DNA of 64,000 bases from contig NZ_AP018254.1 in assembly GCF_002368395.1 (NCBI RefSeq), positions 3,224,001 to 3,288,000 on the forward strand, read 5' to 3'. Of this stretch, positions 8,763 through 64,000 are shown one piece after another; position 1 is the first letter of the stretch, and the number at the start of each line of letters is the position of its first letter. The notes under the pieces were generated by a model, which saw only the letters and a list, made by a program, of their open reading frames with translations, was not told the DNA's origin and did no database searches. Made by a program: the position numbers and the translations under genes. The DNA is from Calothrix sp. NIES-3974. GTDB taxonomy: Bacteria > Cyanobacteriota > Cyanobacteriia > Cyanobacteriales > Nostocaceae.

Positions 8763-8809
8763 TGACAGGTCAGCCTTTAGTAGTTTGCAACTATTAGATT
8801 AGCAACTAT

Positions 8810-10847: not shown

Positions 10848-10862
10848 TTGGTATTTCCTGTA

Positions 10863-13741: not shown

Positions 13742-13835
13742 GAAAATCGATATAATACCATTTCACTAAAATTTTGACATATTTTCTTCCCCTGTATCCC
13801 GTCATGTATCAGTTCCAAGGTAAAACGGTATAAGT

Positions 13836-13940
13836 CTGCATTTGGAGCGAGTTAACGGTAAGCGTTGAGTAATAGCTTAGTTTTCTTTCTATTCCCTACT
13901 CCCAACAAGTTTTAGGAGTTTGTGATAAATCCGGGATAAG
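13836..13940 (-). repeat. Dispersed repeat, CCGGATTTCTC family, copy 4
   Basis: Contains GGTAAGCGTTGAGTAATAGC and ends TTTGTGATAAATCCGGGA. It has the same orientation as copy 3. Confidence 0.65.
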
Positions 13941-14055
13941 TTACTGTTCTGAAATAGTACGGCGATGAAAATTTTAACTTGATTTCTCTGTGAGGTACAC
14001 TTTGGGATTATGATATTGAAACTGTTGACGTTTCCATTTTTGTTGTTAAGTACCT

Positions 14056-15144: not shown

Positions 15145-15212
15145 TTGAAAACTGTTAGCTAACAGAAAAGAAACGGAATTTCCTAGCCGTTGACCAAAAG
15201 AATGGGATACAG

Positions 15213-15240
15213 AGCCATCGTGCTTCTAGCACGGCTTTTT
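15213..15240 (+). terminator. Intrinsic terminator after leuB
   Basis: The hairpin CGTGC-TTCTA-GCACG, extended by a flanking GCC/GGC pair, is followed directly by TTTTT, about 70 bases after the leuB stop codon. Confidence 0.6.
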
Positions 15241-15289
15241 GCTATGCTTCTACTAGAGCTACTGGCTATTATCCCTCTGGACTCAAGAC

Positions 15290-15560
15290 ACGTTGAACGG
15301 CAGCAGCCACTACAGCGACGGTGAGAGTAGGAGCAGAGAATGCTCTTTGAGGCAATGGTCTAAAGTCCAACCTTAAAAGCACCCATGTTTTAGGGTTTTC
15401 GGACAAAAGTCGGCATCGGGCATGGGCACGACTCTAAATGGACGGGGAGAGAAGGTAAGACGGGTTCGCCCGCGCATCTCGGTGAGCCGTCAAGAATCAC
15501 CGCTCCTTTTGGAGGGTGAGTATGTCAATTTTCGATTAATTCCAAACCATAAATCTAACA
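15290..15560 (+). pseudogene. Decayed tnpB 3' end with omega-RNA-like terminus
   Basis: One frame near 15412-15560 reads GMGTTLNGRGEKVRR...SRQESPLL, resembling the extreme C-terminus of IS605-type TnpB proteins. Stops and shifts interrupt it further upstream. The DNA ends with the hairpin-bearing stretch GTCAAGAATCACCGCTCC...GGAGGGTGAGTATGTC, the form typical of IS200/IS605 right ends, where the tnpB tail overlaps the guide RNA. A related but different stretch lies at 42130-42520. Boundaries are approximate and no tnpA is present. Confidence 0.4.
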
Positions 15561-15578
15561 TACAGAAAAAAGTAAACC

Positions 15579-15839
15579 GTGTACGCTTATAGACAAGAAC
15601 AAAACGAATTCACCAAAGTGCGACCGCAAGCTGCATTAATTGACCCAGCAGTCATCCGCGCAGCTGGTCAAATCTATCACACCTATTGTGAAGTGCATCC
15701 AGAAATCACTGGTCAAGCAACGGGTGTGGCAATAAAACGCACGAATTTGCGAGGTAAGGTGATTTTTATCGAAAATCCAGCCTTGTTACCGGATGAATGT
15801 TTCATTCCCCTAAGTCAAATAGAATCCTATGTTTATTAG
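15579..15839 (+). CDS. Small hypothetical protein
   Basis: An 86-residue frame starting at GTG (15579), with no recognised family. The composition is protein-like (YRQEQNEFTKVRPQAAL, AAGQIYHTYCEVHPEI, CFIPLSQIESYVY), with no membrane segment or signal peptide. It is the only sizeable frame between the tnpB remnant and the prepilin peptidase gene and runs the same way as the latter. It is possibly a conserved cyanobacterial orphan; I cannot give a function. Confidence 0.55.
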   Translation: MYAYRQEQNEFTKVRPQAALIDPAVIRAAGQIYHTYCEVHPEITGQATGVAIKRTNLRGKVIFIENPALLPDECFIPLSQIESYVY

Positions 15840-15952
15840 CTCTTGGAAGCAGGTAAAAACAGATTTTTTCTGATTGCAACACCCTATTGCCTACTCCCAA
15901 GCAAAGGCTATATTTGTAGCCGATGTTGCTTTTTTGGTGAGTGTATTTGGCG

Positions 15953-16771
15953 ATGGATATGGTAGTTTTTATTCCTGCAAGTGCGATCGCATTTGTGGTG
16001 GGTGCTGCGGTTGGTAGTTTTCTCAATGTTGTCGTTTATCGTTTACCTGCGGGTTTGTCGCTGTTACATCCACCATCCCGTTGTCCCCAGTGTTTTACAC
16101 CCCTTAAACCCCATGATAATGTCCCCGTGTTAGGGTGGTTATGGTTAAAGGGTCGGTGTCGTTATTGTAAAACTCGTATTTCTCCCCGGTATCCGGTGGT
16201 AGAGTTTACCACTGGAATAGTTTTTTTACTGGTTTTCGGGAATTTTCAATTTTCCCTTTCAACCTTGGGCTATTGGGTATTTTGTAGCTGGTTGATAGCT
16301 TTGGCTTTAATTGATGCGGATACCATGACCCTTCCGAATCCCCTAACCGCATCGGGAGTTATTTTAGGTATTGGTTTTAAATTAATTGAGGGATGGCAGC
16401 AAGGGGGTTGGTCACCAGCTGTAAACTCCTTATTTGCAGCCATTTTTGCGAGTGTGATTGGTATTTGGCTATTTGATACGATTCGCATCCTGGGTTCGGT
16501 TGCTTTCGGTAAAACCGCAATGGGTGGAGGAGATGCAAAACTCGCAGCAATGATGGGTGCTTGGTTAGGATGGCAAAATCTGCTGTTAGCGAGCTTTATT
16601 GCTTGCTTACTCGGTGCAGTTGTTGGAGGGATAATGCTAAGTCGAACTTCCCAGAAAAGTAACAGTATGCTGAAGATACCATTTGGACCCTATTTAGCAA
16701 TTGGAGCTATCTTGGCGATGTTTTTTGGAGAAACGTTTATCTCTAACTATCTGAATTTATTTTCCGTTTGA
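15953..16771 (+). CDS. pilD: Prepilin leader peptidase / N-methyltransferase (A24 family)
   Basis: The polytopic inner membrane protein (272 residues from the ATG at 15953) processes type IV prepilins by cutting the leader and methylating the new N-terminus. The N-terminal methyltransferase part carries the zinc cysteine pairs CPQC and CRYC around residues 40-75, and the A24 aspartic peptidase core shows its two catalytic Asp regions, ALIDADTMTLPN and GGGDAKLAAM. At least six hydrophobic segments follow. A GTG at 15941 could extend it by four residues. It stands alone, as is common for pilD in cyanobacteria. Confidence 0.93.
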   Translation: MDMVVFIPASAIAFVVGAAVGSFLNVVVYRLPAGLSLLHPPSRCPQCFTPLKPHDNVPVLGWLWLKGRCRYCKTRISPRYPVVEFTTGIVFLLVFGNFQFSLSTLGYWVFCSWLIALALIDADTMTLPNPLTASGVILGIGFKLIEGWQQGGWSPAVNSLFAAIFASVIGIWLFDTIRILGSVAFGKTAMGGGDAKLAAMMGAWLGWQNLLLASFIACLLGAVVGGIMLSRTSQKSNSMLKIPFGPYLAIGAILAMFFGETFISNYLNLFSV

Positions 16772-16890
16772 ATATATTATTTCCAGGATGTATTTCCCAG
16801 ATTTAGATACACCTACATCGGGGAGTAACTATCATCAACTGAGTACACCTGAACTGATAAAAGTGGTTTTGTCCCCACTCCCTACTCCCT

Positions 16891-16919
16891 GTACAGACGA
16901 CCCGACGGGTCGTCTGTAC
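16891..16919. repeat. Palindrome GTACAGACGACCC/GGGTCGTCTGTAC
   Basis: A 29-base palindrome, perfect apart from its centre base, embedded between two CTCCCTGTA words. It is nearly the same as the one at 5978-6002. Confidence 0.8.
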
Positions 16920-17093
16920 TCCCTGTAGATTTGAGGAATATTTGAGAAATGCGGGGTCAGAGTTTATAACTGTTAATTTGATTACAAGCAGCAGGGTTTT
17001 TCTTCTGATAGTATCAATTTGTGGTTAGAATTACCCTCAGCCCTTCCGCAAATCACTAATCTTCTGGTATTAGGGCTTACTGAAAAGTAGTAA

Positions 17094-17113
17094 AGACGCG
17101 ATATATCACGTCT
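17094..17113. repeat. Palindrome AGACGCGATATATCACGTCT
   Basis: Imperfect copy (one mismatch pair) of the palindrome found perfectly at 32773-32796 and 39001-39028. Confidence 0.7.
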
Positions 17114-17696
17114 CTATATCTTGTAAGCGTTAGAGGGTATGTTAGTCGCAAAAAGTGCAAACAAAACTAGACCTAATAGAAGCTCAAAAAACCTTGCATC
17201 TGTAATTTGTGGGAGCCAAGCAAAAGTGGAATTGTTAGGTTATGAGGTTTTACTTTGGGGGAAACTTGCGGAAGTCGGAGAAGAAAATGTATCAACATTT
17301 TTGTGAAATGGTATTAAAACCCTACTACCTACTCCCAACTCACCGTACAGAAGTGACATGTCCCATCTGTACCCAACTCCCCACTCCCTATTTATACTAA
17401 GTGTTTACCTTTCGAGAAAAATATCCGGAGATACTTGATTTTATGAGCTTGTTAGCAATAAATTACTAAGCCGAAATGGGTTTATATATTTTCATTAAGC
17501 TGGCAACCAAAGCAGTAAAATCGGGTCTGAATGGTAGAGGGCACGAACTTGACCGATTAGTCAAGAGGTAAAAGTAATAACTCCTAGCACCCTTAACCGA
17601 ACTTTGTAATTTGATCAAAATCGGATTATCTTTACCTAAAGAAGAAAAAAGATTTAACTATTTTCTCAAAAACTACCAACCAAAAAATCAGCAAAA

Positions 17697-48567: not shown

Positions 48568-49125
48568 TTAACTAGCAATGCCTTCTAATCGCTGCAATTT
48601 TTGGTTCTGATCCAGTTTACAACGCTGTGATTCTCTCCAAATACGGGGAGTATTTTGATAGCGATCGCGAAATTGACAGTAGAAATGATTGATATTTTGA
48701 TAGCCTACATCTAAAGCAATCTGCTCAACAGAATTATTAGTTTCTAAAAGTAAGGAGCTTGCAGCTGCAATCCGACGCTCGATAATCCAATTATTGACCG
48801 TTTTCCCGGTCAGTTTTCGCACTAAGTCGGTTAAGTAAGCTGGGGAATAACCAACAGCTTGAGCTACTTCTTTTAGTTTAATATTTTGATGATAATTCAA
48901 TTCAATAAATTCAAAGACCTCCCGCAGTCGGGGAATCGATGGAAATATGGACTTCTGAGTATTTGATTTTCGATTTTCGGTAGTAGTAGATAATTTCTGG
49001 TGTGCTAACTGCACATTAACAAGACCATTTTCTGTGATAATTACCTCAAATCCTGCTGTTGACAAGCATTTCATTAAGAGGTTTTTTGTTTCAGGATGTT
49101 CATCAATTAAAAAAATATTACTCAT
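48568..49125 (-). CDS. AraC-family regulator with a truncated receiver domain
   Basis: The ATG at 49125 is fixed by a GGAGAAAGT site directly upstream. Residues 1-42 (MSNIFLIDEHPETKNLLMKC, STAGFEVIITENGLVNVQLA) copy the first strand-helix-strand of a response-regulator receiver. The chain then jumps to an AraC-type double helix-turn-helix (about 72-170: FEFIELNYHQNIKLKEVAQA, VGYSPAYLTDLVRKLTGK, VGYQNINHFYCQFRDRYQNT). The phospho-acceptor Asp strand of the receiver is absent, so normal phosphorylation is unlikely. It may be a natural single-domain regulator that kept a stub, as seen in related cyanobacterial AraC proteins. The inducer is unknown. Confidence 0.82.
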   Translation of the reverse strand: MSNIFLIDEHPETKNLLMKCLSTAGFEVIITENGLVNVQLAHQKLSTTTENRKSNTQKSIFPSIPRLREVFEFIELNYHQNIKLKEVAQAVGYSPAYLTDLVRKLTGKTVNNWIIERRIAAASSLLLETNNSVEQIALDVGYQNINHFYCQFRDRYQNTPRIWRESQRCKLDQNQKLQRLEGIAS

Positions 49126-49617
49126 ACTTTCTCCTAATATTGATTTTTTGAATACTTTGAACATGCTTGACACAAATTACTCGGTTAAGAAAAAACCTCT
49201 TTATCTGAAATATAGCCAATTTGTTACAAAACTTTACATAAGAGATGGATGTCTATCCAAAAAGCTCATAAGTCTTTTGGAGTATCATCTTCAGCACATG
49301 TTAAAATGAAATACTATTACCCTAATGGGTACTTTACTAACGGCAGAATTGCATAAAAAAAAGTGCAATTATCCCCTCGCTCCCATGCTCCGCGTGGGAG
49401 AAGAATCTGCGAGGTTCCTGCTTCGTGAATGAAGGCAGAGCCTTCAACTCACTAAGCGACTACGCGGAGCATGGTCACTAGATAAAAAGTTAATACTCGG
49501 TTTATTTCAGCCAACCTGTACTAGTGACTTTATCTTTTAGCAAAAGTTTTATTAGTCCACTAGCACCTTTGAGATGTGCCTCTGCTAAAATGCCAGAAAT
49601 GATGATTGTGATGGGTT
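49126..49617. other. Spacer with a degenerate MITE-like element
   Basis: About 490 bases between the AraC and CHAT-WD40 genes; the right part holds a MITE-like element (about 49370-49523). No gene is supported. Confidence 0.45.
49370..49523. repeat. MITE-like element, degenerate copy C
   Basis: The right end TTCAGCCAACCTGTACTA matches the inverted ends of copies A and B, and the interior contains CTCCCATGCTCCGCGTGGG and CTACGCGGAGCATGGTCAC. The palindromic blocks are in an order different from copies A and B, and the left end is not recognisable, so the boundary is approximate. Confidence 0.55.
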
Positions 49618-52600
49618 TTAAAATAAACTTTGAATTTCTTTATCAGTGAACGGATTCATACCAGTACGTAGGGTATTAATCCAGTGTTGCCGTTTTAATT
49701 TATCTTGCAGATTAGAAGTCCAAGCGATGAAAGCTTGAAAATCCGCGATCGCTCCTTCGGTATTACCTGTTAATGCTCTAGCAAGACCGCGACTATCTAA
49801 AATTTCTCCATCATTAGGCACAAGAGCTACTGCTTGTTCACAGGCATATATGACATCAGCAGCATGTTTATGTAGACTACCAAACCAACAGAGGTGACTC
49901 CAAGAACTGGGAGAAATTTCCAAGGAGGGGTCGAATTTTTGGGCTTGTGCGTAAGCTGCGATCGCTTCCCAAATTTTGCCATTTGCGGCACATTTTTCCC
50001 CTTTCCTAATTAAACCTAAAGATACAAACTGACGAGCTTTTGTCTGTGGTTCAAAACCGAGATTTGGATCGAGTTCCAACGCGGATTGAAACTTAGCACT
50101 CGCAACTTCTAAATTACACTGTCGTCCTGCATCTTCTCCTTCTTTAACCTTAGTTAAAGCCTCTACCTTGGCTGTGAGATTAAATTTCAACTTAGTCGGA
50201 TTCCAATTCAGCGCAGTGCGAAACTTGGCAATTCCATCTTCAATATCGCCTTTGATAATTAGTTTTTCTCCTTGAGTTACCATGACAAATGCCGAAGCCG
50301 CTCTGATAGCGGGAGTTTCACATTGTTCTAATTCATTGAGTGCATCAGGGTGGGTGATGAGATAATCTGCAAACCAGGTACACCCACGCATTTGTAAATC
50401 AGCAAAATCGAAATTCCATAAAATTACCCTTTTGTCATTACCTGCTGTAGCGAGGGTTTTACCATCAGGACTAAATGTAGCGTTATTGACTACATCGGTA
50501 TGTCCGGTAAGGGTTTGTAGCAATTGACCATCCCGATTCCATAGTTTGACCGTCTTGTCTTCACTTGCTGTAGCCAAAATTTTACCATCGGGGCTAAAAC
50601 TGACACTGCGGGTATGGTTGCTATGTCCAATCAGGGTTTTGAGAAGTTTACCCTCCCGGTTCCATAGTTTGACCGTCTTGTCTTCACTAGTTGTCGCGAG
50701 GGTTTGACTGTCGGAACTAAATGTAGCGCTGTTGACCCAACTGCTATGTCCGGTGAGAGTTTTTAGTAACTGACCGTCCCGGTTCCATAGTTTAGCTGTA
50801 GTATCATTACTAGTAGTGGCAAGGATTTGACCGTCGGGACTAAATGTAACGCTATTGAGTTGATCATTATGTTGAGCGGTGAAGGTTTTTAGCCACTGAC
50901 CTTCTCGACTCCACAATTTAACTATATGATCATCACTGGCAGTGGCGAAAGTTTGACTGTTGTCGTGGCTGAAGGTGACACTATTGACCCTATTTTTATG
51001 CCCAGTGAGGGTTTTTACCAGTTGACCCTGCCGATTCCACAATTTAACTGTCTGATCATTACTAGTTGTCACCAGGATTTTGCCATCAGGGCTAAATGTA
51101 ACCCTATTGACGCGATCGCTATGTCCAGTTAAAGTTTTTAAAAGTTTACCCTCCCGGTTCCACAGTTTAGCAGTCTTGTCATTACCAGTTGTCGCCAGGA
51201 TTTTACCATCGGGGCTAAATGCAACCTGATTGAACTGCTCGTTATTTTGGGTAAGGGTGGTAAACAGCTTGTGTTCCAATTTCCACAGGATTACAGTGTT
51301 GTCAGTACTGGCACTAGCAAGGGTTTTGCCGTCACGACTAAATGTAGCACTATGAACTGCATCGCTATGTCCAACAAAGGTTTTGAGAAGCTTACCTTCG
51401 CGGTTCCAGAGTTTAACTGTCTTGTCATTACTAGCTGTCACCAGGGTTTCACCATCAGGACTAAATGTAACGCTATTAACATGACCTTCATGTCCAGTGA
51501 AGGTTTTGAGCAGCTTACCTTTGGTGTTCCATAGTTTAACTGTCTTATCATTACTGGCTGTAGCTAGGGTTTTACCATCAGGACTGAATGTCACCCTATT
51601 AACCTGTTCATTATGTCCAGTGAAGGTTTTGAGCAGTTTACCTTCGGTGTTCCATAGTTTAACCGTCTTGTCAGTACTAGCTGTAGCCAGGATGTTACTA
51701 TCGGGGCTAAATGCAGCGCTATTGACATTATCCTCATGTCCGACAAAAGTTGCAATCAATTTGCCTTCGCGACTCCATAGTTTAGCTGTATCGTCATTAC
51801 TATTAGTCACAATTTGACCGTCAGGGCTGAAACTAATGCTATTAATCAGCCTCGCATGTGCATCAAAACTTTTGAGCATCTGACCTTTGCGATTCCACAA
51901 TTTAACTGTCTGATCGTCACTTCCAGTGGCAATAGTTTCACCGTCGGGGCTAAATATAACACTTCTGATATAACTATTATGTTCTTGCAAGCGATTAAAC
52001 TGTTTAACTTCATTCATCACTTGCCCCAATACAACTGTAATAGGAATTTTTAGCTCTATATTTTCCCCTTGAATTTGTGTGACTTTTTTCGCAGCCTTGA
52101 GAATAGTTTTCAACGCATCAAATTCTTGTCCTAAAGTCAGAAGTGCTTCTGAGGAGTTCGTGAGGGATATAATTTCATTCTTGGCTGAGTTTTGTGATTG
52201 CCACCAAGCCACCCCAGTCAAACTCAAGGCTACAACCAAACCACCAGATAGCCCGAAGACAGTAAATTGTCGTCTCCGCTTTTTCTTCCTGCTCTCACGC
52301 TCCCGAAATTCCACACTCAGCCTAATAAAACTCCTCTCTACCGGACTCAATTCTAAAAAACGCTGTCTTTCCCAATACTCCGCATCTGCCAGTGGTTTTC
52401 CTCGCAACAATGCCCCTTCATCAAAACCACTACTCTCCCAAGTACGCATTGCTACCCGTAACTGCTCTTGCCAGTGGCGAAAGTCCCTATCTTGCTGCAT
52501 CCACCGATGTAATTGTCCCCAATTACGGATTAAAGCTTCATGGACAACCTCTACCGTATCCAAACCCGTTTTCTCATCCCTTCCAGTAACTACCAAACGC

Positions 52601-54747
52601 GCGTCAGCCAAGCGAGTTACCAAATCCCAATTCTCTTCACCCACCTCAGTGCGGGTAGCGATGCGACGGGTATCTTCCGCTCCTTCCCCTGGATGTACTA
52701 GCTGGATAAAAATTCGCTGTGTCCTTTCTTTTTCCTCGAAATTTAACTTGTTATATGCTTGGTCAGCATAACTTGCTAATGCTGCTTCTACTCCGCCAAT
52801 TTCATCGTAGGCAGCGTGATTTAATTGAGCATTCAGTTGTTTTGCCCATAGTTGAGTCAAAGCAAACTCTAATAAAGGTAAATTCCCCGGTTCGACACTA
52901 ATAGTAGCAAGGATGCGTTCCACCAACCCCTGTTCGATTGTTACTCCCAATAAATTCGCAGGTTTTTCCACTACTGCTTGCAATTCCTCATCCGTCATCG
53001 GACCAAGCTTTAAGTCTGCATATTGTAAGGCATCGGCAAAGGGACGATAAGACAATGCTTGTCCGAGAAAATCTGCCCGCAGAGTGATGACGAAGGTGAA
53101 ATGACGACAGCGACAGATAGCTTCGAGTAATCGATCGAGAAAAGTTTGGCGTTCCTGTGCATCTGTGCAAAGGGTATAAAGTTCTTCAAATTGGTCGGCG
53201 ATCAGCAAAAAATGCTGGCTAGGATTTTGTTTGAGGATATCATCCACCACATCCCGCAACCCATTCTGGTACTGTCCCAGGTCGCTAGCCAGGTTTCTCA
53301 TCTCCCGCAAGCGTTCAGTGCGGCTAAGTACAGGTTTGGTGACTTGGGACTCTTTTTGATTAGAACTGCGGTCTTCTTGTTGTTGGTCAACAAGGGCAGT
53401 TGCCAGATTAAACAAAGGTCTGGAACCGGGACGAAAGTCAACAATATGCCAATTACCAGCATCTCGCAGACGCTTTACTAAACCTGCGAACACCACACTG
53501 GACTTACCACTACCACTAGAACCAATCACCGCTACCAAGGGTTGATTTTGCACCGCATCCACCAACATATTGGTGAAAGTTTCCCGTCCAAAAAAAAACT
53601 GTGCATCTTCTTCACCAAAGGCGAATAAACCACGATAGGGAATAATATCGGTGGGACAACGACCCAAGTCTAACCAATGGGGTGGGTTTGCATCCGTATT
53701 TTGACAAATTACTGGTAACCAGGAAGCACAGGGATATTTATCCTCCAGTCCATGCAACTTTAATCTAGCTTCCTTGACTGCTTGATATAAGGACTTACTA
53801 CCCGATGCAAAATCTGATAAAAAATGCTTTAAAAATACCTGTGCTACTTCATCTGGAACTTGTTCGCGCATGACAATAATTTGGGGAATGTGTAGCGTTT
53901 CTAAATCAGACGCTAATCCCAAACCATCACAGGAATTGAAAATTGCTACAGCTAACCCGTTACTCTTCGCTTTTTTCAAACCATATTTGAGGTCATCCGT
54001 AGTTAAGCTTTCTTGGTTTTCATTAATATATATGCGACCGCTATCTTCCACTGTTTGGCTATGACCGGCAAAAAACAAGATATCCCAAGGTTTTTCCCAC
54101 AATTGGTCGTTGATTTCATAGCGTTGGGGTTGTACTAAAAAGGTGACATCGGCATCCGGTAAACTATTGAGTAACCTGCGGTCTGTTTGGACATCAATAC
54201 CAGTACTGTTACCCAAAATCGCCAGAACTTTGACTTTACCCCTCATACTTGGGGTTTTGGTTGGGGGTGTTTTTTGGTAATCGGTTGCACTTAAAGCTAG
54301 TTCGGCATGGGGATATTCTTCCACCAAATCCCAAAGATGCCAAGGTATTTGTCGCAATTGTGGATTAGATGTGCGAATTAGTATCCGTACTATTTCATTT
54401 TCTTGTAATTCCTTTAACCAACTCTCCCGGATGGAGCGAAAAGATTCCGAAAGTAGCCAGTTATTCAATCGTTTTTTTAACTCAGTTGCTGAATTTTTGC
54501 AGTCTGACTGTTTCTGAGTAATAGAACCATCATAAGTAACTTTTTTTGCTTTGATAGCACGATTACCACTACCTAAACTCCGATAGTGCGATCGCCACTG
54601 ATCAATTGTTGTCTGTAATTCCGTAACTGCTGGTAGATTACCAGTTACTTCTTTATGGGGACTAACACCTTCCAAAGCAATTGAAAGCGTTACCCTTACA
54701 CCCTGCTGCAAATCGCCGTCCAATTTTAAGACAACTAATTTTGTCAT
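49618..54747 (-). CDS. CHAT protease - STAND ATPase - WD40 - TPR protein
   Basis: The 1,709-residue protein (ATG at 54747) combines four modules. A CHAT caspase-like domain (about 170-350) has catalytic His229 in LFFAGHSQ and Cys273 in IFNSCDGLG. A STAND-type NTPase (about 370-690) has Walker A GSSGSGKSS (409-417) and Walker B HFLLIADQFEELY (about 512-524). After a charged stretch and a membrane helix (about 820-840, VFGLSGGLVVALSLTGVAWW), 13 WD40 repeats of about 41 residues (about 920-1450) form one or two propellers. A TPR-like tail ends it. Such proteins are signalling or self-harm devices in bacterial defence; WD40 senses, the STAND part oligomerises, CHAT cuts. The role is inferred. The repeated DNA makes plus-strand shadow frames. 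Confidence 0.9.
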   Translation of the reverse strand: MTKLVVLKLDGDLQQGVRVTLSIALEGVSPHKEVTGNLPAVTELQTTIDQWRSHYRSLGSGNRAIKAKKVTYDGSITQKQSDCKNSATELKKRLNNWLLSESFRSIRESWLKELQENEIVRILIRTSNPQLRQIPWHLWDLVEEYPHAELALSATDYQKTPPTKTPSMRGKVKVLAILGNSTGIDVQTDRRLLNSLPDADVTFLVQPQRYEINDQLWEKPWDILFFAGHSQTVEDSGRIYINENQESLTTDDLKYGLKKAKSNGLAVAIFNSCDGLGLASDLETLHIPQIIVMREQVPDEVAQVFLKHFLSDFASGSKSLYQAVKEARLKLHGLEDKYPCASWLPVICQNTDANPPHWLDLGRCPTDIIPYRGLFAFGEEDAQFFFGRETFTNMLVDAVQNQPLVAVIGSSGSGKSSVVFAGLVKRLRDAGNWHIVDFRPGSRPLFNLATALVDQQQEDRSSNQKESQVTKPVLSRTERLREMRNLASDLGQYQNGLRDVVDDILKQNPSQHFLLIADQFEELYTLCTDAQERQTFLDRLLEAICRCRHFTFVITLRADFLGQALSYRPFADALQYADLKLGPMTDEELQAVVEKPANLLGVTIEQGLVERILATISVEPGNLPLLEFALTQLWAKQLNAQLNHAAYDEIGGVEAALASYADQAYNKLNFEEKERTQRIFIQLVHPGEGAEDTRRIATRTEVGEENWDLVTRLADARLVVTGRDEKTGLDTVEVVHEALIRNWGQLHRWMQQDRDFRHWQEQLRVAMRTWESSGFDEGALLRGKPLADAEYWERQRFLELSPVERSFIRLSVEFRERESRKKKRRRQFTVFGLSGGLVVALSLTGVAWWQSQNSAKNEIISLTNSSEALLTLGQEFDALKTILKAAKKVTQIQGENIELKIPITVVLGQVMNEVKQFNRLQEHNSYIRSVIFSPDGETIATGSDDQTVKLWNRKGQMLKSFDAHARLINSISFSPDGQIVTNSNDDTAKLWSREGKLIATFVGHEDNVNSAAFSPDSNILATASTDKTVKLWNTEGKLLKTFTGHNEQVNRVTFSPDGKTLATASNDKTVKLWNTKGKLLKTFTGHEGHVNSVTFSPDGETLVTASNDKTVKLWNREGKLLKTFVGHSDAVHSATFSRDGKTLASASTDNTVILWKLEHKLFTTLTQNNEQFNQVAFSPDGKILATTGNDKTAKLWNREGKLLKTLTGHSDRVNRVTFSPDGKILVTTSNDQTVKLWNRQGQLVKTLTGHKNRVNSVTFSHDNSQTFATASDDHIVKLWSREGQWLKTFTAQHNDQLNSVTFSPDGQILATTSNDTTAKLWNRDGQLLKTLTGHSSWVNSATFSSDSQTLATTSEDKTVKLWNREGKLLKTLIGHSNHTRSVSFSPDGKILATASEDKTVKLWNRDGQLLQTLTGHTDVVNNATFSPDGKTLATAGNDKRVILWNFDFADLQMRGCTWFADYLITHPDALNELEQCETPAIRAASAFVMVTQGEKLIIKGDIEDGIAKFRTALNWNPTKLKFNLTAKVEALTKVKEGEDAGRQCNLEVASAKFQSALELDPNLGFEPQTKARQFVSLGLIRKGEKCAANGKIWEAIAAYAQAQKFDPSLEISPSSWSHLCWFGSLHKHAADVIYACEQAVALVPNDGEILDSRGLARALTGNTEGAIADFQAFIAWTSNLQDKLKRQHWINTLRTGMNPFTDKEIQSLF

Positions 54748-55235
54748 TGGTAGCAAAAAAAATAAACACTTTTATTTATGCTACAGCTTTCCTCATCAGT
54801 TTACGCAAAAATTAAACTTTAATCAGATTAATTCTTCCAATGAGCCTACACCTAGAAGCGATAGAAGCATTGCTATATATGGATTTCTTAATTACAAATC
54901 CCGTAGCTTCCTTCTGCTAAGATTATTGCAAAAAGGTATAATAACTATAGAGATTCCCATTCAGATATGGTACAAAATTATATCATCAGATACTGATAAG
55001 GGCACAACATTGCTGTGCCCTTATTAGTATATTTAACTAGGCGAAGAAATTTCATGTAAGTAGTAGCACAACCATCGTGATATTAACAACTAATCCCGGA
55101 TTTCTCACAAATCCCTCAAACTCCCAGGGAATAGTCCGTGACGGGAGTAGGGAATAGCAATAAAATTAAGCTATTACTTAACGTTTGTTCCACAAGAAAT
55201 TTATTGTTGGGTTATGGACATGTGCCGACCATATT
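54748..55235. other. Spacer with a dispersed repeat copy
   Basis: About 490 bases upstream of the CHAT-WD40 gene. A copy of the CCGGATTTCTC dispersed repeat occupies 55093-55190. A hairpin AAGGGCACAACATTGCTGTGCCCTT at about 54999-55022 (quoted in part: GGGCACAACATTGCTGTGCC) may end the Uma2 gene or regulate the large gene. Confidence 0.5.
55093..55190 (+). repeat. Dispersed repeat, CCGGATTTCTC family, copy 6
   Basis: Begins ATCCCGGATTTCTCACAAAT and ends AAGCTATTACTTAACGTTT, with a GGGAGTAGGGAATAG middle. It is in the same orientation as copy 1. Confidence 0.65.
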
Positions 55236-56199: not shown

Positions 56200-56484
56200 T
56201 TACTTTTCAAAATCTGACTTATTTGGTCCAGGTAGACCATTCGGAGTGTAAATTTGTGCTTGGGCATCGACACGTCCAACAATTGCAGTTCCTACGCCAC
56301 ATAAAATTAGTACTGCCTGTCCCACGTCGTCAATGGTGATTTCGCCTTCCTTGATACTATTCACAGACAGTGGAACTAAGGATGCTACTCCTGCTAAGAT
56401 GGCTCCCCAAAATGTTCTACTAGCAAAGATACTTTTGGCTTCTATTTTATCAGAGGAATTTGGCGGATTTGAAGGATTCATCAT
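56200..56484 (-). CDS. Small holin-like membrane protein
   Basis: The 94-residue protein has a polar N-terminus, a hydrophobic helix (about 24-42, FASRTFWGAILAGVASLVPL), a second helix (about 54-70, GQAVLILCGVGTAIVGR) and a polar tail ending IYTPNGLPGPNKSDFEK. The SRTFWGA...GLPGP arrangement recalls small phage-type proteins found beside lysis genes, but there are no phage genes here. It starts with an ATG pair preceded by GGAG and ends in a strong terminator. It may be the last gene of the RiPP-side operon or independent. Confidence 0.6.
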   Translation of the reverse strand: MMNPSNPPNSSDKIEAKSIFASRTFWGAILAGVASLVPLSVNSIKEGEITIDDVGQAVLILCGVGTAIVGRVDAQAQIYTPNGLPGPNKSDFEK

Positions 56485-56630: not shown

Positions 56631-57704
56631 TTAATTATTTTTAGATAGTGATAATTTGTTGGAATCAATGTCCAGTAGAATGGAAAATATTTGGGGAAGA
56701 AATTTCCAGCTAATGGCATCAGTGGCAACTTCTTGCTTTACCAGAAGTGAGAAAGGTTTGTCAAAATCGTTACATAATGCGACGAAATCGACAACAGCAG
56801 CATACCAAAGCAATGGTGTATCCGTACATCCCTCTGCGAGGAAGTGAGATGCTTGTTCTAAAAATGTAGGAATATCGTTCTCTAAAAAAGATTTTTTCAG
56901 GAGAAACCAATCATAAGCTCGCGGGTGTCCGTGATAATTTTTCTGTAATTGTGGTGGTATGTGATGCCTAACAATTGCCAATAATTCTCTAGCTAACCGA
57001 GGAGACTTTCCTGCCAAAATCACAGCGATTTCACTCGCTATTTGTGCAAAGGTTGCTGCTACAAGTTCTTTGGGTTGGGAGACGACATGCTCAAAACCCC
57101 AAAATCCTGGAAATGGCAAAGTCTTGATTACTCCTTCCAGGTAAGCTAGTAGTTTGGCTGCAAGCTCAATTGCCTGATTGTAGCGCATTTGTCTGGCTTC
57201 AGTGCGTACAAGATTATGGAGGAGTTGAATACGATGTATGTGCATAATCTGGTATTCGTATTTCTCCTCCAAAACTGCATCTATGGCTAGAGCAACAGAT
57301 GTGCGAGCATAAACTTGCTCAAAATTACCCTTGCGGTAATCAAGGTAGGCTTCAGCCTGTTCTAGGAAAGATCGATGTAGCAGACTGCTTTCGGGTGAAA
57401 GCAAATTAGATTCCAGGGGGATACGAGCTTTTGCAAACAGATGCTCTGCCATGATGAATTCCCCACGGCGAACAGCAGTTAAAGCATGTTCACGGGTATT
57501 CGCCGCTTGTTGCATAATAACTTGCTCAGACTGCGGTAAACGACTCTCCATCAGTAGATATAGTCTGTGAGTGAAGAAGTCTCCATACTTATTCAATACA
57601 AACTGAATTGGCTTGACGCGACCCAATCGATAATTTTGTAGAGTAGTTTCCAGAACATGCTGATAAACCTCTAAATTGTGTTGGGATAATTGCATTTTTA
57701 ACAT
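56631..57704 (-). CDS. Helical-repeat (TPR-like) protein of unknown function
   Basis: The 357-residue, cytoplasmic-looking protein starts at ATG 57704 after AGGAGA. It is almost wholly alpha-helical, with TPR-like helix pairs (ANTREHALTAVRRGEFIMAE, SFLEQAEAYLDYRKGNFEQV, MRYNQAIELAAKLLAYLEG), suggesting a protein-protein scaffold. No catalytic motif is visible and I do not recognise a named family. It lies on the same strand as the LanM, protease and precursor genes, beyond a MITE-like element, so membership in that locus is only a possibility. Confidence 0.6.
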   Translation of the reverse strand: MLKMQLSQHNLEVYQHVLETTLQNYRLGRVKPIQFVLNKYGDFFTHRLYLLMESRLPQSEQVIMQQAANTREHALTAVRRGEFIMAEHLFAKARIPLESNLLSPESSLLHRSFLEQAEAYLDYRKGNFEQVYARTSVALAIDAVLEEKYEYQIMHIHRIQLLHNLVRTEARQMRYNQAIELAAKLLAYLEGVIKTLPFPGFWGFEHVVSQPKELVAATFAQIASEIAVILAGKSPRLARELLAIVRHHIPPQLQKNYHGHPRAYDWFLLKKSFLENDIPTFLEQASHFLAEGCTDTPLLWYAAVVDFVALCNDFDKPFSLLVKQEVATDAISWKFLPQIFSILLDIDSNKLSLSKNN

Positions 57705-58173: not shown

Positions 58174-58998
58174 TTAGCAGTGTCCACCAATCATAGGATA
58201 ATGTTCGGATAATGTTCTTAAAACATATTCATAGGGAAGCCAACCATAGCCTTGATCACCCCACTCAGTTCCCCATGAGTTTCTAATCAGAATCGCTCCC
58301 GTTGTTTCTATTCCTGTCGGGTCTGTATTCTTAATTTTGATGTCGTCATCATATCCCACTGCTACCATCACGTGACCATCGTACCTGGTTTCAGATGCGA
58401 TAGGAAGCGGTATCATCCCAGTTGTAATAGATTGTTCTAGGCTGCTTTGATAGAGAAGAGCACCAAACATGAGAGGACGATTCGCTGCTAGATTTGCCTT
58501 AATCTGTTGCAGAACCACATCTCTAGTTCTGCCTTTAATATCAATTCGATAATACTCTAAAGCCTGATAATTACTGGCAAAGGCATAGCAAAAAGCCGGA
58601 GGTTCTTCGTCGAATTTTGCTTCATCATAGGGCCAATATTCTTCCGGAGGTGTACCGAAAAGCGCTAGCGCTTTCATCGTGGTTCTCGGATTTGCTCCTT
58701 GATCTCCTGTCCACTGAAGCAAATTCCTTGTGGCTTTGTAGAGAAACAATCTAGATAAATTCAAATCCTTCCCGGATGCTTGTCTTTGATAATACTCTAC
58801 TAATGCCACTGCTGCATTGGCTGTACAGGACTGGATTTTACCTTGGTGCTTAATCGGAGAACACCAATCTCGCAAATTTACCGATTTTGGTAGGTCAGTC
58901 AAAACTTCAATGTAATAAGTTTTGTCCCGTTCATCAATCGGGTCTTGAATCCATCCAGTTCCTTGTTGTTTTAGTTGCAGTGTTTGAATGTTATCCAT
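58174..58998 (-). CDS. Papain-type (C1A) cysteine protease in the lanthipeptide locus
   Basis: The 274-residue protein (ATG at 58998 after a GGTGA site) is a C1A peptidase: oxyanion Gln52 and catalytic Cys58 in KHQGKIQSCTANAA, His209 in YDGHVMVAVGYD, and Asn240 in ILIRNSWGTEWGDQGYGWLP. There is no signal peptide or pro-region, and the short N-terminus (GTGWIQDPIDERDKTYY) resembles other bacterial cytoplasmic C1A proteins. The chain ends GGHC. It follows lanM by 209 bases on the same strand, so it may remove the leader of the modified precursor or give self-protection. This is inference from position; classical leader proteases are C39 or subtilisin types. Confidence 0.88.
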   Translation of the reverse strand: MDNIQTLQLKQQGTGWIQDPIDERDKTYYIEVLTDLPKSVNLRDWCSPIKHQGKIQSCTANAAVALVEYYQRQASGKDLNLSRLFLYKATRNLLQWTGDQGANPRTTMKALALFGTPPEEYWPYDEAKFDEEPPAFCYAFASNYQALEYYRIDIKGRTRDVVLQQIKANLAANRPLMFGALLYQSSLEQSITTGMIPLPIASETRYDGHVMVAVGYDDDIKIKNTDPTGIETTGAILIRNSWGTEWGDQGYGWLPYEYVLRTLSEHYPMIGGHC

Positions 58999-59207
58999 GA
59001 TATTCACCTGAAGTAGATTAATGGTGGGTTCAGTGAGTAGGGAGTAGTAAAGTGAGTACAAAGAATCAAAGTTGGTGTGGTGGACTACTAGATTTGTAAA
59101 CGCTAGAGGCTAACTTCAGTCCGATAGAGCAATTGCTCGGCTGGAATGTTCTGAATTTTTAGACTCTCCTGTAGTCATGGGAAGAGAGTGTCAACATCGT
59201 GCTAACC

Positions 59208-62200
59208 TCATTGCCATAGCAATACCGAGGGCATTTGTTCTGGATATGCTAACCTCAATAGTTCATATCCAATTCCAGCCGTTCCTTGAAAGAAACCAGG
59301 ATTATAAGCTCCTTGGAAACGGTTGGGGAATATCTGAAAAGAACCCGTATTGATTGCCCTGGTGACAGCCCATGCTGCTTGTTTTTGAGCGATTTCTGCA
59401 AGTTCCGGTCGCTTCAGTTGAATGGCTGCAACTAGAAGCGTTTCCATCCGACCAAAGTTACCGCAACACAGGTGATCAATTTCATGCATTCCTGATATTT
59501 GCGTGGTTTGCAAAGCGATCTCAATGTCTTGGCGAATGTCATCAGTATCTAGGATTGCCAAACCACCTAAACGAGCCAAACCAATACCAGGAGCGCCATG
59601 ACACCAACTGGCACTAAAGAATGGCTTTTCGCTGCGGAAATCTGGCCAATTTTGGGCGATCGCACAAAAAACCCTTTGTTCGTAAGCAATCGCATCTGTG
59701 GCGGCTGCGAGAAAATCGGTATTTTTTGTGACTTTATACAACCGTAGTAAAGCGTAGGCAATACCAGCCGCACCATGAGAAAAGCCCGTCAATGTTTTTC
59801 CATTCAAGGTTTTCCATACTTGCAAACCTGCATCACTGGTAATGCGATGGTTCAACAAATGATCGCCACAGATTACTGCTTGCTCTAGAATGGCTACATC
59901 TGCGGTAGCTTGATGCAACGCTAACAGCCCTAAAATGGTACCAGCCGTCCCCGACACAACATCAAATTTGCGATCGCTCCCAATGAGTTCTGGTGTAATG
60001 AAAGAGGCGATAGATTGAGCATGATCCAGGAGTGTAGGTTCTCCTAAAAACTGGCTGCACCGTACTAGGGTATAGAGAATGGAACCGAGACCTTTCCCTC
60101 CACCAATACCGATGTTTTTCAGTATTCTCTGCTTGTCTACGGACTCTAATTGCAAAAGTTTGAATAGGGGTTGTAGCGCTCCTAACACCAAATGACGATT
60201 TTCTGCGTTTTTGGTAACTTGCGCTAATGCAGACAGAAATAAAGCAACTCCCGAAACTCCATCATAGAAGTCATAACCCATTGGCTTTTGTTGTAGTCGT
60301 CCAGCTTCCGGTAAATATTCCATCCCGATCCACGTCACGCTACCATCCGTGGCACAAATTGCCCGTTCTTGTAATTCCCATGCGATCGCGATCGCTTGCT
60401 CAATTAACATTTCTCTAGCTACTGGAGCGATCGCGTCATCACCTAGTGTCGGCTGTCTAGATGAAGCTAATGAACCCGCAACATCGCTAGCAAAATTGGT
60501 ATATAGGGAACTGCGAATAAAACCAATCTGCTGTGCTAAATCGGTTTGATTGAGTTGTTCAAAACGAGCCATTACGTGGTCATAACTTGAGTCAACAAAA
60601 TAGTTTTTAATTGACTGATTAGTACCAATTTGCAAATCCTGACTGTAGGGATGAATACTAAAGATGGGAATATCTAAATGAGACAGGGCTTTTTGTTCGG
60701 CTGCAATAATACTCCAACAATTGGGTTTTGTCTCATGTTTCAGGAGTGACTTACTGAGTACATCTAACCCAATACTGCGATCGACACCATTTCGGAGAAA
60801 TTTCGGCTGTAGTGTTTCCTTGAGCAGCGAACTATAAACTTGAGTTGCACGAAAAATAGCCCGAACCTGTTGATGAGCTAACACCACCAACAAACCATTC
60901 TCAGCCATCAGTGTTTGTTTATGGTCAATCAAGAACTGATACATTTGCTCAAATCCTTCCACCAGTTCTTCTACATAATCGCTGAGTGATATCTGTACAC
61001 CATTTAAAGTCACAATGTTGGAGTATGATGGCGTTTTCACCGCTTCCCGACGCAAAACCATACCGTCAGTGTTGATGTTTTGCCACACTAATCTGTGATA
61101 ACTGGTTTGTTGATTTCCCGATCCACCAAAACCGCTCATATCGTAAGCAACCCCGTCCTGTCCTAATTGCCAACTGGGTAGCAGGTAAGTGCTTAACACC
61201 GAGTAAGTAAACTGCTCAAACGCCATAAATAAAGCACTTGTAGCCTCTCCACTTTCTTCCTGTCGAGCGATCGCAGACATCAACATTTCTAGGTCGATGG
61301 GAACAGGTTGCTCTCCACAGGCGATAATATTCTCTTGATGAAAATCTGTACCTGAGAGTGCATACAGCAAGCACAGTAGCATCCCCGCTCTTTGGTAATA
61401 TCGCTTGACGGCTAGTTGGTCGGTACAAGGGGAATGTTCGACGTATTCAACCCAACCATAATTTGAGCAATTAATTAATTTTAGCACCTTCAGTTGCAAA
61501 GGAATCCCATTTTCATTCAACCAAGCCACTAGCCGAAAATAGGCTTCCTCTAAACCGAGAGCTTTGGGTTTATAAATTAGCTTTAAACCAGAAGCAAAGG
61601 TAATTTTGATGACCGATCGCCCATTACAATGGGAGTCAGAAAGACCAGGCTGAATCGCAACGACTTGTCCAAGTTCTGCATTGCTTTGAAAAGTTGTCTG
61701 AATTTTTAACCAATCTGCGGCTAATCGTTGTAGAAATTCGCAGAGATTATTTACCCAAAAGTTTGTGACAGTTGCCACCAGTCGAGCTAAAACAGGGTAT
61801 TCCAGAAAAAAATCAAGCAGTTCCCCTGCTAACATATTTCTGATAAAATTACGGTAGTGCTTCGTGGAATGACTCCCCTCTAGTTGCCCAATTAGTCGAA
61901 TGAGTGAGGATTTTTGATAAAGCCGAAACACCAGGAAATTTTCTCCGAGTGCCTGAGAACAAAGGGAGGTTAATGACTTGAGCAAAGACCGTTCTAAAGT
62001 AGCGTGAGACTCGGATGAAAGAAGGAAATAATTTTCACCAGATTGAGTAGTTAATCTTTGCCGTGCAACATCGATAAACGACAAAAATAGTTCCTCAAAG
62101 GGGAGCGACTGTTGAGAATCTAAAGGATATTTCTTATCTAAGAAATCTTTCTCGAAAGCATCAGCAGAATCTGGGGTAATGGATTCCAAAAGCGTCCTCA

Positions 62201-62477
62201 GAGTTTCTGCCCAAGTTGGTAAATTTTGCCGATCAACTAGACGAACAGAACCGAGAACATGACGGATTTTATCTAAATCTAGACCATCCCAAGCCAGACG
62301 CTTCTCAAATTGAGCTTCGTTTCCATCAGCTATTGTTTGACACCAACGTTCAATTCGTGCGTTGATAGCATTGTCATCAACTGATATTTGATTGGATAAA
62401 AACTCCCTTCCCAAGCGCTCAGGAATTGTGCTGGCTTGTTCTACAATTTTAATTAAGTCTTCTTGAGTAATTTGCAT
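59208..62477 (-). CDS. lanM: Class II lanthipeptide synthetase LanM
   Basis: The 1,089-residue enzyme dehydrates Ser/Thr of the precursor and then cyclises Cys onto the dehydro residues. The N-terminal dehydratase half has the kinase-like motifs LKLIYKPKALGLEEAYFRL, GTDFHQENIIACGEQPVPID with conserved His and Asp. The C-terminal LanC-like half (about 740-1089) has GFSHGAAGIAYAL, zinc Cys959 in SASWCHGAPG and Cys1004-Cys1005 in HLCCGNFG, the C-C-G form of the ProcM branch instead of C-H-G, plus GFFQGTAGIGYELLR. A GGGAG site precedes the ATG. The precursor gene lies 485 bases upstream on the same strand. Confidence 0.95.
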   Translation of the reverse strand: MQITQEDLIKIVEQASTIPERLGREFLSNQISVDDNAINARIERWCQTIADGNEAQFEKRLAWDGLDLDKIRHVLGSVRLVDRQNLPTWAETLRTLLESITPDSADAFEKDFLDKKYPLDSQQSLPFEELFLSFIDVARQRLTTQSGENYFLLSSESHATLERSLLKSLTSLCSQALGENFLVFRLYQKSSLIRLIGQLEGSHSTKHYRNFIRNMLAGELLDFFLEYPVLARLVATVTNFWVNNLCEFLQRLAADWLKIQTTFQSNAELGQVVAIQPGLSDSHCNGRSVIKITFASGLKLIYKPKALGLEEAYFRLVAWLNENGIPLQLKVLKLINCSNYGWVEYVEHSPCTDQLAVKRYYQRAGMLLCLLYALSGTDFHQENIIACGEQPVPIDLEMLMSAIARQEESGEATSALFMAFEQFTYSVLSTYLLPSWQLGQDGVAYDMSGFGGSGNQQTSYHRLVWQNINTDGMVLRREAVKTPSYSNIVTLNGVQISLSDYVEELVEGFEQMYQFLIDHKQTLMAENGLLVVLAHQQVRAIFRATQVYSSLLKETLQPKFLRNGVDRSIGLDVLSKSLLKHETKPNCWSIIAAEQKALSHLDIPIFSIHPYSQDLQIGTNQSIKNYFVDSSYDHVMARFEQLNQTDLAQQIGFIRSSLYTNFASDVAGSLASSRQPTLGDDAIAPVAREMLIEQAIAIAWELQERAICATDGSVTWIGMEYLPEAGRLQQKPMGYDFYDGVSGVALFLSALAQVTKNAENRHLVLGALQPLFKLLQLESVDKQRILKNIGIGGGKGLGSILYTLVRCSQFLGEPTLLDHAQSIASFITPELIGSDRKFDVVSGTAGTILGLLALHQATADVAILEQAVICGDHLLNHRITSDAGLQVWKTLNGKTLTGFSHGAAGIAYALLRLYKVTKNTDFLAAATDAIAYEQRVFCAIAQNWPDFRSEKPFFSASWCHGAPGIGLARLGGLAILDTDDIRQDIEIALQTTQISGMHEIDHLCCGNFGRMETLLVAAIQLKRPELAEIAQKQAAWAVTRAINTGSFQIFPNRFQGAYNPGFFQGTAGIGYELLRLAYPEQMPSVLLWQ

Positions 62478-62962
62478 ATTCTCCCATCTTGCTGTTAGGC
62501 TTTTATAAATATTAAAAACTGTCTCTATCGCACTTTATATGCCAATTTCCCTGATGAAAATTTCGAGATTGGCTAGGAAGATGTTTGGAAAGCGTCAATC
62601 AATACTTTTTTAACTTTTTTAACGTGAGTTCGATGAACCTCACCCCAACCCCTCTCCAGAATGGAAAGGGGCAGAAAAATCTATAGTTTAAACCCAAAAT
62701 AACTGCTTTCAAAGCCTCTGTTATTGTATGAGGGAGCTTTGAAGAGGTATTCTCTCGTTTCCACGCTCTGCGTGGGGACGCATTTCACAATCAAACGTTT
62801 TAAATTCAATAGGCGATTTCCAGACTCGTTCCCACGCTCTGCGTGGGGACGCATTTCAAGAGGCTCTGCCTCGATTGTATCTGAACTGTTACTAACCTAA
62901 AAAGGCACAAAATACACAGCCTAACTCCTACCTCGTGAATCTATCACAGCTTGGAGAAGGTA
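62478..62962. other. Spacer between precursor and lanM genes with hairpin repeats
   Basis: About 485 bases. It contains two near-identical blocks with the hairpin CCACGCTCTGCGTGGGGACG (62763 and 62831) and a CACCCCAACCCCTCTCC word near 62641. No further precursor gene was found. Confidence 0.5.
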
Positions 62963-63313
62963 TTAGCGATAAACAAAACAATCAGCCAAAGTAATTGACC
63001 CCATCATACAGGGTCCTAAATCCCCTATACCGTCTCTAACTATGAACGTACCGCTTGCCACTGCTTCCAATTGCTCCTCTGTCATGGCTTCAGTTGCAGG
63101 TACGTGAGGTAAAACCAGGTATGCTGTATCGGCAGTTTCTTGCAGCACTTGCACTTTAAAATCATCAGGTACTTTTTGTCCAATGGCTTTTTCAATTTCA
63201 GCTTTTGCAACTCCAGGATTAGTAAGTAATTGTTGCTTGAACGATTCATCTTTTAAAGCACGAATAATAATTTGAGTTTCGTAATCTTGACGTTTTTCGA
63301 TTTGATTAGCCAT
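62963..63313 (-). CDS. Lanthipeptide precursor with nitrile-hydratase-like leader (NHLP)
   Basis: The 116-residue peptide starts at ATG 63313 after AAGGA. The leader (1-88) has the nitrile-hydratase alpha-like fold signature: IIIRALKDESFKQQLLTNPG, AEIEKAIGQKVPDDFKVQVL and QETADTAYLVLPH, then a Glu-rich helix MTEEQLEAVASG. It ends in Ala-Ser-Gly, a weak double-Gly-type site. The probable core (89-116) is 28 residues with Thr89, Cys102, Ser106, Thr108 and Cys112: TFIVRDGIGDLGPCMMGSIT followed by LADCFVYR. One or two thioether rings are possible. It lies directly upstream of lanM, its likely enzyme. The frame is open further upstream but the family start is at 63313. Confidence 0.92.
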   Translation of the reverse strand: MANQIEKRQDYETQIIIRALKDESFKQQLLTNPGVAKAEIEKAIGQKVPDDFKVQVLQETADTAYLVLPHVPATEAMTEEQLEAVASGTFIVRDGIGDLGPCMMGSITLADCFVYR

Positions 63314-63449: not shown

Positions 63450-64000
63450 TACAGCAGATTCGAGGTTTATGAGGTACAGTAGCAACAATTAGTAAACCAA
63501 TTTTTTAGATGCTTTGGATCAACTAATGTCAGTGCAATTTTAATTAAACCATCAACTACAGATGCACTTTTAGGAGAAAACTGTTTTAAGAACGCTTTTA
63601 ATTGTGACCACCAATGTTCAATTGGATTAAATTCAGGGGAATAAGGAGATAGATAAAGAACACTTGCTCCTACAGATTCAATCAAAGGCTTAATCTCTTC
63701 GACTTTATGTGCTGGCAGATTATCCATTACAACGACTGCACCAACCCATAATTGTGGAAGTAAAAAATGCTCTACAAAAACTTTATAAGCTTCTCCATTC
63801 ATTGAGCCATTTAAAGTCATCACAGCTAAGACTTTTTTGAAGCTAATTCCTCCAATTACACTTATTTTTGCACCTCGGTAATATGGTTTAAAATCATAAG
63901 CTCTACTCCCGCGATCGCTTCGAGCATGAGTTCTAGTCAAACCAAGCAAAACACCCATTTCGTCTATAAACACAAGGTTTTCTGGGTCTATGTGTTTTAC
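63450..64000 (-). mobile_element. IS630-family insertion sequence, second copy (partial)
   Basis: It begins with the inverted repeat TACAGCAGATTCGAGG (63450-63478) and continues past the right edge. Over the 551 bases present it corresponds without length change to 6783-7333 of the first copy, in opposite orientation, and I see no difference in the stretches compared, so it moved recently. It lies 137 bases upstream of the precursor peptide start. Confidence 0.92.
63467..64000 (-). CDS. IS630 transposase, catalytic part (partial)
   Basis: The last 177 codons of the transposase are present, read from VKHIDPENLVFIDEMG to WFTNCCYCTS. They include all three catalytic acidic residues (FIDEMG, VMDNLPAHK, PIEHWW). 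The DNA-binding N-terminus and the slippery A8 run of the first copy would lie beyond the window. Confidence 0.92.
   Translation of the reverse strand, partial: VKHIDPENLVFIDEMGVLLGLTRTHARSDRGSRAYDFKPYYRGAKISVIGGISFKKVLAVMTLNGSMNGEAYKVFVEHFLLPQLWVGAVVVMDNLPAHKVEEIKPLIESVGASVLYLSPYSPEFNPIEHWWSQLKAFLKQFSPKSASVVDGLIKIALTLVDPKHLKNWFTNCCYCTS

What the first reader, a model, noticed from the sequence alone, without database searches (positions are those of the whole stretch)
58174..63313. Three-gene lanthipeptide locus: NHLP precursor, LanM and a papain-type protease
On one strand lie a precursor with a nitrile-hydratase-like leader, a full LanM synthetase and a C1A cysteine protease with an intact Gln/Cys/His/Asn site. 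NHLP precursors and LanM enzymes are known partners; a C1A protease in place of a C39 peptidase-transporter is not the classic arrangement. The product should be a cyclised 28-residue peptide. This is the best candidate here for a little-described system.
Basis: partly seen in the sequence, partly recalled or inferred. Interest (0 to 1): 0.85.

Follow-up and report, generated by a model that had tools for sequence, protein, structure and literature searches.

The report
Lanthipeptide cluster with stand-alone papain-type protease
A cyanobacterium carries genes for making a small ring-bearing peptide in which a free-standing papain-like protease sits where related clusters carry a protease fused to an exporter; the same pairing recurs in five other cyanobacterial loci, so it looks like a real but little-described variant of a known pathway.

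Summary
Confirmed and extended. On the minus strand lie an NHLP-type precursor (63313-62963), an intact ProcM-type LanM (62477-59208) and a papain-family (C1A) protease (58998-58174). The LanM-C1A pairing recurs in five other cyanobacterial loci. In four of them, as here, C1A is the next gene after lanM, the slot held by a C39 peptidase-transporter after ten other cyanobacterial lanM genes; no C1A locus has a C39 gene nearby. The six LanMs fall in at least three lineages with two precursor types (NHLP, Nif11), yet their C1As form one clade, so the protease behaves as a transferable maturation module.

Corrections: the locus is larger than three genes. A second precursor lies just outside the window beyond an IS630. 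Conserved partners are a TPR protein (57704-56631), which recurs next to LanM or radical-SAM RiPP genes across Nostocaceae, and an AraC-type regulator (49173-48568). The C1A keeps Gln/Cys/His/Asn, but an 11-bp duplication has frame-shifted its conserved C-terminal tail, so its activity in this strain is uncertain.

Most likely mechanism: LanM installs lanthionines, including a conserved Cys-x-x-Gly-Ser ring; C1A removes the leader in the cytosol. Known precedents are PoyH and ThoK. New variant of a known kind; no biochemistry tested.

The parts
62963..63313 (-). NHLP-type precursor 1, 116 aa: 88-residue leader ending LEAVASG, 28-residue core TFIVRDGIGDLGPCMMGSITLADCFVYR (one Ser, two Thr, two Cys)
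   Evidence: (TIGR03793 77.6 bits)
59208..62477 (-). LanM class II lanthipeptide synthetase, 1089 aa, ProcM-type CCG zinc site
   Evidence: (TIGR03897 988.6 bits)
58174..58998 (-). C1A papain-family protease, 274 aa from the ATG, no signal peptide seen; catalytic Q52/C58/H209/N240 kept; C-terminal tail frame-shifted
58196..58217 (-). 11-bp tandem duplication (GAACATTATCC twice) that shifts the frame of the protease's C-terminal tail
   Evidence: the homologues' tail LSxDWWTLLKxxWLDTGxF is readable in another frame just downstream
56631..57704 (-). Unannotated TPR-fold protein, 357 aa, recurrent partner of LanM and radical-SAM RiPP loci in Nostocaceae
   Evidence: (no Pfam)
56200..56484 (-). 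Small protein with a hydrophobic segment, 94 aa; downstream of the C1A gene in three of the C1A loci, but elsewhere mostly not RiPP-linked: doubtful member
48568..49173 (-). AraC-family regulator; homologue directly upstream of the precursors in Nostoc punctiforme NIES-2108 and near other RiPP loci: probable member displaced by rearrangement
63450..64000 (-). IS630-type element (part inside the window; full element L005 7451-8470 with 29-nt inverted ends) that separates precursor 1 from precursor 2

Best explanation
This is a class II lanthipeptide cluster with proteusin (NHLP) leaders, matured by a stand-alone cytosolic protease. LanM binds the long leader, phosphorylates and dehydrates Ser/Thr of the core, and its ProcM-type LanC domain closes thioether rings. 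For core 1 I predict a reverse-oriented ring between Cys14 and Ser18 (the C-x-x-G-S motif conserved in all five cores read from this LanM clade) and a methyllanthionine between Thr20 and Cys24. The C1A protease then cuts after the ASG motif, the job that the C39 domain of a peptidase-transporter does in related clusters. Shown by sequence: domain architecture, intact catalytic residues of LanM, recurrence, positional replacement of C39 by C1A, one C1A clade across different LanM lineages and precursor types, and recurrence of the TPR gene in RiPP clusters. Inferred: dehydration, ring pattern, that C1A is the leader peptidase, and a peptide- or leader-binding role for the TPR protein. Export is unexplained: no transporter gene adjoins the cluster, so a transporter encoded elsewhere, or an intracellular or lysis-released product, must be assumed. 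The C-terminal frameshift may have weakened the protease in this strain.
For: LanM matches TIGR03897 at 988.6 bits and keeps the CylM residues: D281/H283/K303 and D378/H380/N383/D395 (phosphorylation), R539/T545 (elimination), C959/C1004/C1005 (zinc, CCG type) (numbering read off that alignment; roles of the CylM residues from general knowledge; CCG type per PMC10783134). The C1A protease has invariant Q/C/H/N and the papain fold, best match xylellain 3ois. LanM-C1A pairing: the window, Nostoc punctiforme NIES-2108 (L001), Phormidesmis priestleyi MAG (L002), G005 (L066), G398 (L068) and, divergently at 3 kb, G727 (L094). In five of the six, C1A lies about 20-410 bp after lanM. Ten other cyanobacterial lanM genes have a C39 domain starting 24-372 bp downstream; no C39 ORF lies in the held flanks of any C1A locus. 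Trees: C1A-linked LanMs need at least 4 label changes, while their C1As group together (80/100 support, 78% of bootstraps, 0 of 500 shuffles). Replacement within one LanM clade: G547 (L137) has a related LanM, an NHLP precursor with the same CMFGS motif and the TPR gene, but NHLM-type C39 export genes; L002 keeps a remnant of L137's aldo-keto-reductase gene between lanM and C1A (E 1e-14). Landornamide, a proteusin cyclised by OspM, has Cys2-Ser7 and Cys10-Thr14 rings (PMC10028609). PoyH removes a proteusin leader and acts on other RiPP precursors bearing its recognition sequence (PMC10885120).
Against: Nothing biochemical was tested. The protease's conserved tail is frame-shifted here. The genome encodes seven C39 domains elsewhere that could cut and export in trans. 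The C1A family in cyanobacteria is mostly not RiPP-linked. Only six loci have the pairing; in L068 the LanM frame is 687 aa (apparently shortened) and in L094 the C1A is divergent. Support for the single RiPP-linked C1A clade is moderate, and the tree program warns of long branches.
Confidence: 0.72

Rival explanations
1. The leader is removed and the peptide exported by a C39 peptidase-transporter encoded elsewhere in the genome; the C1A protein does something else, such as degrading the precursor or conferring self-protection.
For: Seven C39 domains elsewhere in the genome; the cluster itself has no adjoining transporter; PCATs can act unlinked (general knowledge).
Against: C1A takes the C39 slot in five loci, no C39 gene lies nearby in any C1A locus, and one C1A clade follows several LanM lineages.
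Confidence: 0.15
2. The locus is decaying in this strain: the frame-shifted protease, IS630 between the two precursors and displaced regulator mean that little or no mature product is made.
For: 11-bp duplication in C1A; IS630 with 29-nt inverted ends between the precursors; regulator about 7 kb beyond the other genes while it sits beside the precursors in Nostoc; no C1A or TPR homologue found in the other genome of the genus, G465.
Against: LanM, precursor 1, precursor 2 and the TPR gene are all open, and the four catalytic residues of C1A remain.
Confidence: 0.3
3. The C1A protein is a chance neighbour of lanM without functional link.
For: C1A genes occur widely in cyanobacteria without RiPP neighbours.
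Against: Six occurrences in different families with two precursor types, one C1A clade, mostly the same slot and strand.
Confidence: 0.04

Closest known systems
Landornamide A cluster (osp, Kamptonema sp. PCC 6506; proteusin cyclised by the lanthionine synthetase OspM)
   Same: NHLP precursor, lanthionine synthetase, rings with Cys before Ser/Thr, one of the CxxxT kind (PMC10028609)
   Different: No epimerase or peptide arginase noticed next to this locus; this locus has a C1A protease and a TPR protein
Polytheonamide/PoyH and thioholgamide/ThoK (C1A leader peptidases)
   Same: Stand-alone C1A protease in a RiPP cluster, NHLP leader (PoyH), GG-like cut site (PMC10885120)
   Different: Those clusters are not LanM lanthipeptide clusters; I could not fetch PoyH or ThoK, so sequence kinship is untested
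ProcM-type class II synthetases of cyanobacteria (prochlorosin, nostolysamide)
   Same: CCG zinc motif, long Nif11/NHLP leaders, cyanobacterial host
   Different: Those are paired with C39 peptidase-transporters (for example NpuT, PMC13060382)
NHLM-export RiPP clusters of Nostocaceae (NHLM_micro_ABC1/ABC2/HlyD)
   Same: NHLP precursors, the TPR protein and AraC regulator; L137 has a LanM of the same clade
   Different: C39/ABC/HlyD export genes present, no C1A

Membership tests
Class II lanthipeptide cluster (LanM) | Bifunctional LanM with dehydratase (DUF4135) and LanC domains | tested here: met
   both domains over cut-off, TIGR03897 988.6 bits
Class II lanthipeptide cluster (LanM) | Catalytic and zinc residues intact | tested here: met
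   against CylM and LicM2: D281, H283, K303, D378, H380, N383, D395, R539, T545, C959, C1004, C1005
Class II lanthipeptide cluster (LanM) | Lanthionine or methyllanthionine in the product | not testable with these tools
   needs co-expression and mass spectrometry
Proteusin / NHLP precursor | Nitrile-hydratase-like leader ending in a GG-like motif | tested here: met
   TIGR03793 over cut-off in precursor 1; both precursors...EAVASG
ProcM-type LanM | CCG motif with three Cys zinc ligands | tested here: met
   ...HLCCGNFG; motif definition PMC10783134
Peptidase family C1A (papain) | Papain fold and Gln/Cys/His/Asn site | tested here: met
   (xylellain 3ois best match)
Peptidase family C1A (papain) | Proteolytic activity on the cognate leader | not testable with these tools
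   and the conserved tail is frame-shifted in this genome
Classic class II system with C39 peptidase-transporter (LanT) | C39-ABC transporter next to lanM | tested here: not met
   nearest C39 domain listed for this genome is about 160 kb away
Polytheonamide-type proteusin | Radical-SAM epimerase and methyltransferase genes in the cluster | tested here: inconclusive
   none noticed among the frames in and beside the cluster, but judged by reading, not by a dedicated profile search
TPR-fold protein (357 aa) | Tandem helix-pair superhelix | tested here: met
   pLDDT 89.6; TPR chains, Z about 10-15; no Pfam match, so the TPR assignment is by predicted fold

The most novel reading that the evidence does not exclude
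The 357-aa TPR protein is a general, class-independent partner of cyanobacterial RiPP clusters (a leader receptor/carrier or a Rap/NprR-like sensor of the peptide) serving both LanM and radical-SAM maturases, and here, together with the C1A protease, it supports a maturation route without a dedicated transporter.
Probability: 0.25. Interest if true: 0.7.

Novelty: new variant of a known kind. Interest (0 to 1): 0.5.

Why it matters
Leader removal is a usual bottleneck in making lanthipeptides outside their hosts; a soluble C1A enzyme that follows both NHLP and Nif11 leaders would be a useful single-domain alternative to C39 domains. Natural replacement of the peptidase-transporter by a soluble protease also makes testable how such peptides leave the cell, or whether they act inside it. 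The unannotated TPR family next to both LanM and radical-SAM clusters is a candidate shared RiPP component.

Tried and rejected
(1) Chance neighbourhood of lanM and C1A: rejected by recurrence and trees. (2) The 94-aa protein as a dedicated exporter: its relatives elsewhere in the family lie mostly in non-RiPP surroundings, so it is listed only as doubtful. (3) Chagasin-type inhibitor partner: I42 inhibitor genes adjoin non-RiPP sister C1As (L095; L097 by similarity) but none was noticed in the RiPP-linked loci. (4) A transporter in the flanks: none adjoining the cluster. (6) Foldseek on the TPR model gave no significant hit (best E 0.012); VIA-align rows are tied and typical of helical repeats, so no specific function is claimed. 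(7) The C1A AlphaFold model is of moderate quality (pLDDT 68.5) and was used only for the fold. (8) Literature searches for a C1A protease with LanM found reviews naming PoyH and ThoK only; the library is open-access only, so absence there is weak evidence. (9) PoyH, AerH and ThoK sequences could not be fetched for comparison.

Full report
Observation. The window is bases 3,224,001-3,288,000 of a 5.99-Mb single-contig genome; its named relatives in these searches are cyanobacteria (Nostoc, Phormidesmis). On the minus strand lie precursor 1 (63313-62963), LanM (62477-59208) and a C1A protease (ATG at 58998, end 58174). Profiles confirm all three.

The locus is larger. A second NHLP precursor lies outside the window at genome 3,289,072-3,288,707 (L005 9073-8708), separated by an IS630 element with 29-nt inverted ends. 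The two leaders are 81/88 identical, while the cores differ: TFIVRDGIGDLGPCMMGSITLADCFVYR and FIGGSIGGNLRVGCILGSITFTDGVNIGVNVGR. Both cores, both Nostoc NIES-2108 cores and the L137 core share C-x-x-G-S. In landornamide, another NHLP product with lanthionines, rings are Cys2-Ser7 and Cys10-Thr14 (PMC10028609), so a Cys14-Ser18 ring is my prediction for core 1, with Thr20-Cys24 as the second. Core 2 has a single Cys, so it can form only one ring.

LanM. The dehydratase and cyclase residues known from CylM are present, and the zinc site is of the CCG (ProcM) type. LanMs of this type are described as substrate-tolerant (PMC12328550).

C1A protease. Gln52, Cys58, His209 and Asn240 are invariant; the closest solved fold is xylellain. 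There is no obvious signal peptide and only a short N-terminal stretch before the catalytic domain. An 11-bp tandem duplication (58217-58196) shifts the frame after ...YVLRTLS, replacing the tail DWWTLLKxxWLDTGxF, conserved in most homologues, by EHYPMIGGHC. The catalytic residues precede it; whether activity survives is unknown.

Recurrence. LanM and C1A lie together in Nostoc punctiforme NIES-2108 (LanM 65% identical), a Phormidesmis priestleyi MAG (73%), G005, G398 and, divergently at 3 kb, G727. In L001 the precursors are NHLP; in L066, L068 and L094 they are Nif11-type (for L066 and L094; L068 by similarity); L002's upstream side is cut by the contig end. C1A lies about 20-410 bp after lanM in five of the six. 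Ten other lanM genes have a C39 domain 24-372 bp downstream instead. Further lanM loci have neither close by.

Evolution. C1A-linked LanMs fall in at least three lineages (at least four label changes), but the C1As group together (80/100). Within the window's own LanM clade, L137 (G547) has the same core motif and TPR gene but NHLM-type export genes; L002 keeps a fragment of L137's aldo-keto-reductase gene between lanM and C1A. This is what replacement of a downstream segment by C1A would leave.

TPR protein. The 357-aa product has no Pfam or NCBIfam match and a confident all-helical TPR-like model (pLDDT 89.6). It occurs in 2 of 386 genomes sampled across the phylum and 19 of 218 of the family. 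Of 21 loci read, 8 have a LanM within about 7 kb, 10 a radical-SAM gene beside it or one gene away, 1 a Nif11 radical-SAM gene at 4 kb, 1 only exporter genes at a contig end, and 1 is on a 3.3-kb contig (radical SAM verified by profile for L122, L125, L127 and L129, and otherwise by motif and similarity). Its role is unknown; peptide-binding TPR folds (NprR, Rap, LGN) are among the tied structural matches, which is only suggestive.

Regulator. An AraC-family gene at 49173-48568 has homologues near ten RiPP loci (counting L001 and its duplicate record L067 once), directly upstream of the precursors in Nostoc NIES-2108.

Known versus new. C1A leader peptidases exist in polytheonamide (PoyH) and thioholgamide (ThoK) pathways (PMC10885120). 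I found no description of one paired with LanM in the open-access library. I therefore rate this a new variant of a known kind. Its function is inferred, not shown.

Noticed in passing
L104 (G685:C80) 9629-17645 and L106 (G423:C2) 3344-10613: A C1A homologue lies beside an APH-like kinase, a HopA1-family protein and a LanC-like protein (class V-like lanthipeptide machinery). In L104 two proteins of 401 and 534 aa between them are very rich in Pro, Thr and Cys (31 and 33 Cys): possible unusually large lanthionine substrates.
   Followed up: partly
window 56631-57704 and 20 other loci (A2, L120-L138): Unannotated TPR-fold family that recurs beside LanM or radical-SAM RiPP genes and NHLM exporters in Nostocaceae.
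   Followed up: partly
L095 9357-9812, L097 8797-9243: Sister C1A proteases without RiPP neighbours adjoin a chagasin-family (I42) inhibitor gene (profile match for L095, similarity for L097).
   Followed up: no
L068 633-2696: LanM frame of only 687 aa directly before the C1A gene; looks shortened, apparently without its cyclase domain.
   Followed up: no
window 49618-54756: 1712-aa STAND NTPase (nSTAND1) with many WD40 repeats lies between the lanthipeptide genes and the AraC regulator.
   Followed up: no
L094 6224-7420: Two Nif11-type precursors with Cys-rich core ends (...FCCFGMTDCWASVC in the second) beside a LanM and a divergent C1A.
   Followed up: no
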